A DNA stretch of 64,000 bases from a virus. Position numbers and translations under genes: made by a program. How positions within the stretch are numbered: the stretch's first letter is position 1; each line of letters opens with the position of its first letter. The notes beneath the pieces were generated by a model. The model did not search any database, had not been told where the DNA came from, and saw nothing but the letters and a program-made list of their open reading frames with translations. Shown here piece by piece: positions 244 to 3,158 of the stretch. Where the stretch lies: positions 1 through 64,000 of the IMG/VR virus record IMGVR_UViG_3300044535_000472; one strand, given 5' to 3'.

Positions 244-432
244 ATGAGTAAGTTGATTTTGTTTTTCTACTTGTTAACCGGGAAGGTTGAGAAGGTAGAC
301 GGGTTGTATACTATACATACACCCGAGAGTTCTGTTATTGAGTACGCTTGCAAAGGTGAAGTGTTATCGTATATAGAGACTGGTGTCTTTAAGTATGATG
401 ACTTCCTTTGTGAAGCAGGTGAGTTGGAATAG
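244..432 (+). CDS. Hypothetical protein, 62 aa
   Basis: Short, mildly acidic protein with a hydrophobic N-terminus (residues 4-12) followed by a soluble tail. The ATG lies behind an A/T-rich leader like those of neighbouring genes. A GC-rich hairpin follows the stop codon, so the gene may end a short transcription unit. I do not recognise the family. Confidence 0.55.
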   Translation: MSKLILFFYLLTGKVEKVDGLYTIHTPESSVIEYACKGEVLSYIETGVFKYDDFLCEAGELE

Positions 433-440
433 GTAGGAAG

Positions 441-473
441 CCGGGGAGTTTTGTGATGATTTTCTCCCCGTGC
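441..473 (+). terminator. GC-rich hairpin, possible terminator
   Basis: Seven-base perfect arms (442-448 with 464-470) enclose an AT-rich loop. The tail is T-rich but interrupted, so it is a weak intrinsic terminator candidate. It lies between two small genes in otherwise AT-rich sequence. Confidence 0.4.
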
Positions 474-514
474 TGTTCTATATTTTAAACAAGTTTAACT
501 TAATACTTAATACC

Positions 515-862
515 GTGGAAAAGAAGTCGTTTTTAATTGGCGCGAGCATAGCCTCCGCCGTGTGGCTATTTGTTATAACTATACTGTTATACAATGCCGA
601 ACCTGTTGTTATATGTGATTCACCATCATATTGTAACGAGTTACCTGCTGATAGTGCTAATGTTATGTACTATGAGCGTGGCTATTTCAATTGTCTTCGT
701 GATGCAAACCCAAGAATGTATAATGCTTATATCTTAAGCGTATATTACTTAAGGGGTGCAGAAGAACAGCGTGTTATTGATAGTGTTGTGTTTGCAGTTT
801 CTAATGAGTATAACTTTGATGATTCTGACCGTGAGTATTTACATACATTAATAACTGATTGA
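515..862 (+). CDS. Hypothetical membrane-anchored protein, 115 aa
   Basis: One strong N-terminal hydrophobic helix (about residues 5-25) after a Lys-Lys start, then a Cys/Tyr-rich soluble domain with C-x(6)-C spacing just outside the membrane, which suggests an exported or membrane-anchored domain. I chose the GTG at 515 because it follows an A/T-rich leader like other starts here. An in-frame GTG at 470 would add 15 residues but lies in the preceding hairpin. The stop is one base from the next ATG, so the two are probably co-transcribed. Function unknown. Confidence 0.55.
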   Translation: MEKKSFLIGASIASAVWLFVITILLYNAEPVVICDSPSYCNELPADSANVMYYERGYFNCLRDANPRMYNAYILSVYYLRGAEEQRVIDSVVFAVSNEYNFDDSDREYLHTLITD

Positions 863-863
863 T

Positions 864-1082
864 ATGACAAGAGAACTTGCTAGAATTAAGACCATACAGA
901 AGTTTACTAACTTACTTGATGGCACGTTGTTACCAGGATATAGTGTGGCTCAAGTAATTAGTTACTATGAGTCACAGCTTCTTGGTGTTTCTACTGATAA
1001 TATTAGTAGGATAGATGGTATCACCGCCAACTTCATGGAGGATTATATAAATAATCTCGATGATGGTGATCAAATATTGTAA
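864..1082 (+). CDS. Hypothetical protein, 72 aa
   Basis: Small helical protein with a basic N-terminus and an acidic C-terminus (N-N-L-D-D-G-D). It starts one base after the preceding stop, so it is translationally linked to the membrane-anchored protein upstream. It is the last gene before the large structured RNA. No recognised domain. Confidence 0.55.
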   Translation: MTRELARIKTIQKFTNLLDGTLLPGYSVAQVISYYESQLLGVSTDNISRIDGITANFMEDYINNLDDGDQIL

Positions 1083-1083
1083 A

Positions 1084-1745
1084 GCGAAGAATGCATACTG
1101 CACTATAAACAAACTATGGTAAAGTTAAAACGCATTCTGTATCTTTACAATCTATTATGTGTTTAGTTGTAGGTAGCAATACCATTTAAAGATGTGAATA
1201 CTATATTTAGAGCGGGTGCTTAACACATCCCAAGTATAGTTACAACTAAATGCATAATTATTTATAGCCCATAAGGGCAAATTTTAAAATTATATACCTT
1301 ACATTATTCAATTGAAGTTAAATGGTGACGCCTATAATCTATTAGGCTATGTGTATTTACCCGAAGGTCAGTCTACCGGGATATTGCAGGAATGTAATAG
1401 TTACACAAATGATTGGTAAAAGAACTGTGACAGGTTCTAACCAAAGGTCGTTTGAAAGTTAAGGGTGCATGTCAAAGCACCGCAAGCTTGTTCTTATGTT
1501 AGTGAAGTATAGTTCAGCACTATAAAAACTACAATTATAAGGTTAAACAACTATTCTGTTTAACATAAGAGCATTTAGCACATGAAAGAATGAATCAGCA
1601 CTGTAAACTACAAATACAATGCTAACGGATAGGGATTCCCTGTCTAAGAGACGGTAGGCCACAGCAGTTAACTGTAAGGCTATTATCATTCTGTAGTATG
1701 TGCAAAGCCGAGTAGTGATACTCGTGGCCTACCACTCTAAATTAT
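1084..1745 (+). ncRNA. Large ornate structured RNA candidate (about 660 nt)
   Basis: The longest gene-free stretch in the window, with many mutually compatible helices. Found by eye: hairpin 1119-1124/1143-1148 whose loop (1132-1138) pairs with 1088-1094; an 18-bp helix 1154-1171/1241-1258 with two G-U pairs; inside it a GCAA-capped hairpin (1172-1183) and an H-type pseudoknot (1191-1196/1224-1229 with 1200-1208/1232-1240); hairpins 1267-1278, 1330-1347, 1413-1444 and 1464-1481; a 13-bp helix 1489-1501/1561-1573 enclosing hairpin 1508-1524; hairpin 1628-1644; a perfect 10-bp helix 1653-1662/1724-1733; a GTGA-capped hairpin 1710-1723; and a long-range pairing (1578-1583/1698-1703 with 1587-1593/1686-1692) crossing the 10-bp helix. 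Size and pseudoknots resemble giant phage RNAs such as ROOL or GOLLD; membership is untested. No T-tract separates it from the next gene, so it may also be a 5' leader. Confidence 0.8.
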
Positions 1746-1769: not shown

Positions 1770-3158
1770 ATGGACAATTTTGTCGATGCAATGTTTTCTA
1801 ATGACGCTTTTACCAATAACGGCGCAGTTACTCATAGTACTGCAGGTATAAGTTGTCTTGACCTGTTTTTTATAGCAGGTGCGAGCCGTTTTATGTCTGA
1901 AGAAGATATAATAACTCTTTTTATGCGTGCTTTCCGTGAGGATAAGCTTGCCGCTGTAAAGATTTTGTTCTGGGCACGTGATGCTCGTGGTGGTGCAGGT
2001 GAGAAGCGTTTCTTCCAAGTAATAATGAAGTACTTGGCTGAAAGATTACCTGAAGTACACGAGCAATTAGCTATACACATTCCTACTTTTGGGTATTGGA
2101 AGGATATATTTGTTACTGAATCTCCTAATGATAACAATCTTAATTGGTTGGCTACTCAATTAAAGGAGAATGCTAATGCTAATCTATTGGCCAAGTGGTT
2201 TCCTCGCAAGGGTCCGTGGTTTGTAGGTATGCATAAGTATATGGGTATCAGTGCAGGTGTATTCCGCCGTATGCTTACAAGTATGTCTAATACCGTGGAG
2301 CAAAAGATGTGTGCTAATGAATGGGAAACTATTTCTTATTCACAAGTACCCTCTGTTGCTGGTAAGAGATATGCTCAGGCCTTTACCAAACACGATTATG
2401 TAAGATACGCCTCTTATATTAGCGATGTTATGGAAGGTAAGGAGAAGATTAATGCCTCGGTATTATTCCCAAGTGACCTTGTAGCAAAAGTATTTACAGA
2501 ACACGATGTTCTTGCATACAATGCTATGTGGAAGAATCTTCCTAACTATATGGAAGGTTGCACTGAAAGAATCTTACCTGTTTGCGATGTTAGTGGTAGT
2601 ATGACGGGACAACCTATGGAAGTATCTATAGGATTGGGCCTCTATATCAGTGAGCGCAATGAAGGTCCTTTCAAGGATGTAGTGTTAACATTTAGTGAGT
2701 CACCGCAATTTCATAAGATAAGCGGTATGACATTAAGTGAAAGAGCACATAATCTTAGACAGGCTGATTGGGGTATGAATACTGATCTAGCTAAAACATT
2801 TAAGGTCATACTTGAACGCGCTATTGAAAACAAGGTTCCTCAAAAGGATATGCCTACCAAGTTACTGATTATCAGTGATATGGAGTTTGACCAAGCGTGT
2901 GGTAGACGCACTAATCTTGATGTTATCAGAAATATGTATGCTGAAACAGGTTACACAATGCCTGATATAGTATTCTGGAATGTTAACGGAAGATTGGGGA
3001 ATGTGCCGGCTAAGGCTAACACACCAAACACTGCCCTTGTTAGCGGGTATAGTCCAAGTATTATTACAAATATCTTGGGCGGTAAGGATTTGAGTCCTTA
3101 TAGTGTGATGATGGAAACTATTGGCAATGCGAGATACAACTGTATCAAACTTGACTAA
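1770..3158 (+). CDS. Ro60-like DUF2828 protein with vWA/MIDAS domain, 462 aa
   Basis: The N-terminal two thirds are helical repeats with the DUF2828-type segment K-I-L-F-W-A-R-D-A-R-G-G-A-G-E (about residues 64-78). The C-terminus is a von Willebrand A fold with an intact MIDAS motif, D273-V-S275-G-S277, then a later Thr and the strand I-S-D-M. TROVE/Ro60 proteins share this helical-ring plus vWA plan and bind structured non-coding RNAs such as Y RNAs, and DUF2828 is related in design. The gene begins 25 nt after the large structured RNA and is followed by a strong terminator, so RNA and gene may form one unit. An RNA-binding role is inferred from architecture and context. The vWA could instead serve a MoxR ATPase, but none is adjacent. 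Confidence 0.82.
   Translation: MDNFVDAMFSNDAFTNNGAVTHSTAGISCLDLFFIAGASRFMSEEDIITLFMRAFREDKLAAVKILFWARDARGGAGEKRFFQVIMKYLAERLPEVHEQLAIHIPTFGYWKDIFVTESPNDNNLNWLATQLKENANANLLAKWFPRKGPWFVGMHKYMGISAGVFRRMLTSMSNTVEQKMCANEWETISYSQVPSVAGKRYAQAFTKHDYVRYASYISDVMEGKEKINASVLFPSDLVAKVFTEHDVLAYNAMWKNLPNYMEGCTERILPVCDVSGSMTGQPMEVSIGLGLYISERNEGPFKDVVLTFSESPQFHKISGMTLSERAHNLRQADWGMNTDLAKTFKVILERAIENKVPQKDMPTKLLIISDMEFDQACGRRTNLDVIRNMYAETGYTMPDIVFWNVNGRLGNVPAKANTPNTALVSGYSPSIITNILGGKDLSPYSVMMETIGNARYNCIKLD

What the first reader, a model, noticed from the sequence alone, without database searches (positions are those of the whole stretch)
1084..1745. Roughly 660-nt ornate, pseudoknotted RNA candidate in a phage
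Seen: one 18-bp, one 13-bp and one perfect 10-bp helix, several 5-9 bp hairpins, two GNRA tetraloops (GCAA at 1176-1179, GTGA at 1715-1718) and three crossing pairings: loop 1132-1138 with 1088-1094; 1191-1196/1224-1229 with 1200-1208/1232-1240; and 1578-1593/1686-1703 crossing 1653-1662/1724-1733. No ORF of 60 aa or more lies within it. Known: giant phage RNAs such as GOLLD and ROOL have this scale and complexity. Inference: a member of such a class or a new one.
Basis: partly seen in the sequence, partly recalled or inferred. Interest (0 to 1): 0.93.

Follow-up and report, generated by a model that had tools for sequence, protein, structure and literature searches.

The report
Phage Y RNA array beside Ro60
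The stretch is not one giant RNA but three small structured RNAs in a row, encoded next to a phage relative of the RNA-quality-control protein Ro60; the same RNA module sits beside this protein gene in very diverse phages and bacteria, which points to a widespread Ro60-RNA machine.

Summary
Folding in 1084-1745 is real, but it is not one ~660-nt RNA of the ROOL/GOLLD kind. Relatives show three modules (M1 1077-1150, M2 1493-1569, M3 1578-1733) plus an insert (1152-1490) that most relatives lack; part of the insert is a decayed ORF. Each module has one core: a 7-bp stem, CAGCA nine or ten bases from the stem base, a variable loop, the other stem strand, then G. The next gene (1770-3158) is DUF2828; its predicted fold matches Ro60. 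The core lies on the gene's strand beside DUF2828 in phages of Escherichia, Listeria, Enterococcus, Mycobacterium, Staphylococcus, Bacillus, Campylobacter and Aeromonas (84 same-strand, 1 opposite, about 3 in shuffles). A gene-blind pattern search of bacterial genomes gave 75 loci; 58 carry DUF2828 in the fetched stretch, all same-strand, median 134 nt away. Some phage copies carry a circularly permuted tRNA-like domain, the layout of the bacterial Y RNA YrlA. Best reading: an array of Y RNA-like RNAs for a DUF2828-type Ro60, with a core absent from Rfam. Ro-Y RNA partnership is known, and phage Y RNAs were reported in a 2014 paper I could not read, so I call it a new variant of a known kind. 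Binding is untested.

The parts
1077..1150 (+). M1: Y RNA-like module. Outer stem 1077-1084/1143-1150, core stem 1088-1094/1132-1138, core word at 1098-1102 (CTGCA here, CAGCA in most relatives), G at 1139
1493..1569 (+). M2: Y RNA-like module. Outer stem 1493-1501/1561-1569, core stem 1506-1514/1549-1557 (one U-U mismatch here, paired in L003-L006), CAGCA 1515-1519, G 1558
1578..1733 (+). M3: Y RNA-like module with a pseudoknotted domain. Outer stem 1578-1583/1698-1703, core stem 1587-1593/1686-1692, CAGCA 1596-1600, G 1693; crossing helix 1653-1662/1724-1733 enclosing a hairpin with GNRA loop 1715-1718
1152..1490 (+). Insert between M1 and M2, missing or replaced in most relatives; not part of the conserved RNA modules
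1318..1482 (+). Decayed ORF remnant inside the insert (stops and frameshifts; relative in L011)
1770..3158 (+). DUF2828/DUF7788 protein, 462 aa, Ro60-like fold; presumed partner of the RNAs

Best explanation
The region encodes an array of three Y RNA-like RNAs for the Ro60-like DUF2828 protein encoded just downstream. Each RNA offers a conserved module: a 7-bp stem of variable sequence, CAGCA about one helical turn from the stem base, and a G after the stem. I infer that this module docks on the outside of the Ro-like ring, as Y RNAs do on Ro60, that it gates access of other RNAs to the ring, and that longer copies present a tRNA-mimicking domain (in this phage perhaps M3's cloverleaf-like, pseudoknotted domain) that tethers a further enzyme. 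Shown by computation: modules, conservation, covariation, linkage to DUF2828, Ro60 fold, permuted tRNA-like domains in relatives. Inferred: transcription, processing, binding, gating, tethering.
For: Same-strand linkage: 84 descriptor hits on the gene's strand against 1 on the other and 0-6 per shuffle, specific for the word CAGCA and for the ten-base offset. All seven stem pairs covary in 51 copies (the 3' strand was chosen by complementarity, so the offset and G controls matter). Gene-blind search of bacterial genomes: 58 of 75 loci carry DUF2828, 58 of 58 on the same strand, median 134 nt; scrambled core 0 hits in viral contigs against 83. Ro60 is the best fold match of the protein (1yvr E 4e-7, TM 0.63; 2i91; phage phiLo Ro60 9l5y). 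40 of 138 long loops hold a circularly permuted tRNA-like domain against 2 of 2760 shuffles; Rfam YrlA spans such copies at E 8e-9 to 1e-5. Copies occur upstream, downstream or away from the gene, as expected for trans-acting RNAs.
Against: No binding or expression data. TROVE (PF05731) is not detected by HMM in the phages tested. The YrlA matches stay below Rfam's gathering score, and that model also rings in tRNA-rich control genomes. Ahp1 carries DUF2828 without a copy in the 20 kb searched, and some contigs of 75-250 kb carry the motif without DUF2828. No permuted tRNA-like domain was found in the window's own lineage; M1 departs from CAGCA and M2 has a mismatch.
Confidence: 0.78

Rival explanations
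1. The modules are cis-acting leader elements: DUF2828 protein binds hairpins in its own mRNA and represses it (autoregulation).
For: In the window and in most Firmicutes loci the modules lie directly upstream on the same strand.
Against: In EC6, Tyson, S-CoN_Ph6 and KP2025 they lie downstream, in KVP40, Ci1 and DLP_6 mostly kilobases away; some hold tRNA-like domains.
Confidence: 0.08
2. The hairpins are processing or stability elements of phage tRNA-type transcripts (landing sites for a nuclease), with the Ro-like protein only loosely related.
For: Copies alternate with tRNA genes in EC6, FADO and KP2025.
Against: P100, S-CoN_Ph6, Tyson and the window have copies beside DUF2828 and not interleaved with tRNAs; linkage to DUF2828 is near-obligate in bacterial loci.
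Confidence: 0.07
3. A single ornate giant RNA of the ROOL/GOLLD kind, or an intron.
For: Overall folding z -5 and the M3 pseudoknot.
Against: No Rfam match; the middle is absent in most relatives and partly a decayed ORF; the core recurs separately in other phages.
Confidence: 0.02

Closest known systems
Bacterial Y RNA YrlA (Rfam RF02553), partner of Rsr/Ro60
   Same: Encoded beside a Ro60-fold protein; a base stem carrying, in the long phage copies, a circularly permuted tRNA-like domain (T-arm, acceptor, D-arm)
   Different: Core word CAGCA at a fixed offset is not in the YrlA consensus printed; two to five copies in tandem, most without the tRNA-like part; protein is DUF2828, not HMM-detectable TROVE
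Phage Y RNAs reported by Chen et al. 2014 (RNA 20:1715; recalled from memory: 'likely Y RNAs near Ro60 in more than 250 bacterial and phage species')
   Same: Possibly includes some of these loci; Y RNAs near phage Ro60
   Different: Could not be read here; whether it covers DUF2828 loci or this core is unknown
Ro60 of Thermus phage phiLo (PDB 9l5y) and animal Ro60 (1yvr, 2i91)
   Same: Fold of the neighbouring protein
   Different: 11-14% sequence identity in the fold alignment; RNA partner of the phage protein not known to me
ROOL / GOLLD giant phage RNAs
   Same: Structured RNA in a phage, region of similar length
   Different: No Rfam match; an array of small modules

Membership tests
Bacterial Y RNA (YrlA type) | Encoded near a Ro60 orthologue | tested here: met
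   Linkage to DUF2828, whose model has Ro60 as best fold match
Bacterial Y RNA (YrlA type) | Circularly permuted tRNA-like domain in at least one copy | tested here: inconclusive
   Met in 40 long copies of other phages and YrlA model hits in L055/L056; not found in the window's lineage
Bacterial Y RNA (YrlA type) | Match to Rfam RF02553 at its gathering score | tested here: not met
   Best 45.2 bits against a gathering score of 69 in L056; none in the window
Bacterial Y RNA (YrlA type) | Binds Ro60/Rsr | not testable with these tools
   Needs biochemistry
Ro60/TROVE protein | TROVE HMM (PF05731) | tested here: not met
   Pfam scan of the window protein gives only DUF2828 and DUF7788; no TROVE match in 35 related genomes at E 0.01
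Ro60/TROVE protein | Ro60 fold: helical-repeat ring plus vWA domain | tested here: met
   Foldseek 1yvr E 4e-7, TM 0.63; model pLDDT 89
ROOL / GOLLD | Match to the Rfam covariance models | tested here: not met
   No match at gathering or at E up to 10
Group I / group II introns | Match to the Rfam covariance models | tested here: not met
   No match

The most novel reading that the evidence does not exclude
DUF2828-type Ro60 proteins and their RNAs form a separate Ro-Y RNA lineage with its own binding code, spread over phages and Firmicutes; in the phage lineage of the window the permuted tRNA mimic has been replaced by a pseudoknotted, non-permuted cloverleaf-like domain threaded onto the Y stem (M3), a new way to build a tethering Y RNA.
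Probability: 0.35. Interest if true: 0.88.

Novelty: new variant of a known kind. Interest (0 to 1): 0.77.

Why it matters
DUF2828 proteins occur in hundreds of phage records (682 here), yet Pfam still lists them as of unknown function. Giving them an RNA partner with a simple, searchable signature turns them into a testable Ro60 ribonucleoprotein system in culturable phages (Felix O1-like, Listeria P100, mycobacteriophages). It bears on why phages carry RNA-quality-control machinery, often near tRNA genes.

Tried and rejected
Rfam scan of the window and of the region: nothing relevant. Nucleotide search in named phages: no match. A giant RNA: rejected on the relatives' module content. The ornate helices of 1152-1490: partly a decayed ORF; no relative of that ORF in named phages. 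A pairing of CAGCA with the sequence after the 3' stem strand (H-type pseudoknot): considered by eye, not consistent across copies. A covariance model of the core was built but not used, because the trimmed loops of the seed do not represent the real loops. YrlA hits elsewhere in tRNA clusters: not counted, since the model also rings in control genomes. Profile search of PDB sequences: no Ro60 hit by sequence; the fold comparison was needed.

Full report
Observation. The stretch 1083-1769 is intergenic between ORFs ending at 1082 and starting at 1770. It folds better than shuffles (z -5.07). No Rfam family matches and ARAGORN finds no tRNA in the window. A second copy of its first 293 bases (82% identical) lies at the other end of the same 122,614-base contig.

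Modules. A search with the downstream protein gave 44 related loci. Comparison with them showed that bases 1-78 and 410-687 of the stretch are kept in most close relatives while the middle is missing, and that the two ends resemble each other. Reading the intergenic sequences side by side showed one repeated unit: an outer stem, a short purine run, an inner stem, CAGCA, a loop, the other strand of the inner stem, UGU, and the outer stem. In the window these are M1, M2 and M3. The middle insert is partly a hairpin of another RNA family and partly a decayed ORF.

Generality. The same core appeared upstream of DUF2828 in metagenomic phages with 36-57% identical proteins. It then appeared beside DUF2828 in named phages: Escherichia EC6, Klebsiella KP2025, Campylobacter F372, Bacillus FADO, Listeria P100, Mycobacterium Tyson, Enterococcus EfV12, Aeromonas APT65 and Staphylococcus S-CoN_Ph6. 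The distance from the stem base to CAGCA is ten bases in most copies (nine in a minority, M2 and M3 among them) and a G follows the stem. A strict descriptor gives 84 hits on the gene's strand, one on the other, and 0-6 per dinucleotide shuffle (mean about 3); other offsets and permuted cores give far fewer. Some of the loci are near-duplicates, so 84 is not a count of independent events. All seven stem positions covary. In whole genomes the strong hits cluster at the gene; KVP40, Ci1 and DLP_6 have their copies mostly kilobases away from it; these lie where the YrlA model rings on tRNA-rich stretches, but I did not check tRNA positions there one by one.

Gene-blind tests. Patterns made from one stem sequence plus the core, without reference to any gene, hit 83 viral stretches, 120 or more with a second stem, and 75 bacterial-genome loci; the scrambled core hit none in the viral set. 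Of the 75, 58 carry a DUF2828 gene in the fetched stretch, all on the same strand, median distance 134 nt. Of the 80 viral stretches fetched with the first stem, 46 carry the gene inside and 22 of the 32 other contigs have it elsewhere; one of these 22 is only a 46-residue end fragment. Most of the ten without it are under 25 kb; three are 75-192 kb. Among phage records in general the gene is found in 682 of 50,697. The second stem gives weaker linkage: 39 of 122 stretches, and 27 of 48 contigs chosen by me for a whole-contig search.

Protein. The window protein matches DUF2828 and DUF7788 and PHROG 850 'RNA-binding protein'. TROVE was not detected by HMM. Its AlphaFold2 model (pLDDT 89) has as best Foldseek matches Ro60 (1yvr, 2i91) and a phage Ro60 (9l5y). 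Annotators already call mycobacteriophage members 'Ro-like RNA binding protein', and a mycobacteriophage survey reports a Ro60-like fold for cluster C and AF proteins (PMC12363180).

tRNA-like domains. Loops of several long copies hold T-arm, acceptor 3' strand, short loop, acceptor 5' strand and D-arm in that order. Under strict criteria 40 of 138 long loops have it, against 2 of 2760 shuffled loops and 17 of 2310 random stretches of the same loci. Rfam's YrlA model spans three such stretches at E 8e-9 to 1e-5, below its gathering score. This permuted layout is, from my knowledge of Chen et al. 2014 and later structural work, the hallmark of YrlA. Salmonella YrlA is described as holding a tRNA-like domain in PMC7790460.

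M3. In 11 relatives the Y-type stems and the crossing helices are paired in 97% of cells; three pairs show double changes and the GNRA loop is kept. The evidence for the crossing 10-bp helix itself is modest: eight of ten pairs never vary, one varies U-A/U-G/C-G and one C-G/U-G. The enclosed domain looks like a cloverleaf with M3's 3' strand in the position of the anticodon loop. That it replaces the permuted tRNA mimic is a guess.

Mechanism, shown and inferred. Shown computationally: the module, its covariation, its linkage to a Ro60-fold protein, tRNA-like domains in relatives. Inferred by analogy with Deinococcus, where Y RNA tethers Rsr to PNPase (as stated in PMC7790460): the RNAs dock on the Ro-like ring, gate it and tether a partner enzyme.

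Novelty. Ro60-Y RNA partnership, permuted tRNA mimicry and phage Ro60 proteins are known. The core signature, its strict linkage to DUF2828 across phages and Firmicutes, and M3's architecture were not found in Rfam or in the papers searched. The key 2014 paper was not readable here, so part of this may already be described.

Noticed in passing
L002 near 236-345 and 1571-1685; L003 2098; L004 2177; L011 3058; L012 2467; L013 2615, 3287, 3703; degenerate in window 1156-1246: A second recurring structured RNA family in these phages: TGCA, a 5' hairpin that varies compensatorily (CTTAC..GTAAG, CTCAC..GTGAG, CTGAC..GTCAG), CAGTTGT..ACAACTG, then A(A/G)TGCA; function unknown.
   Followed up: partly
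window 244-1376 and the contig end (L002 617-1801): The gene block before the array and the first part of the array are duplicated, diverged, at the far end of the contig; the record breaks off inside the second copy.
   Followed up: partly
window 1318-1482; L011 2695-2847: Remnant of a protein gene (LNGDAYNLLGYVYLPEGQS..), decayed in both loci; no relative in named phages.
   Followed up: partly
L047 4539-5480, L053 160-2930, L051 4634-5670: In several phages the CAGCA RNAs alternate with true tRNA genes in one array.
   Followed up: no
L054 5732-7015: Listeria phage P100 has a tRNA-splicing ligase gene close to DUF2828 and its RNAs, recalling bacterial rsr-yrl-rtcBA operons.
   Followed up: no
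L031-L394, bacterial loci L320-L394: DUF2828 with the CAGCA RNAs also sits in contigs of Clostridia, Enterococcus and other Firmicutes genomes; whether in prophages or on the chromosome proper was not resolved.
   Followed up: partly
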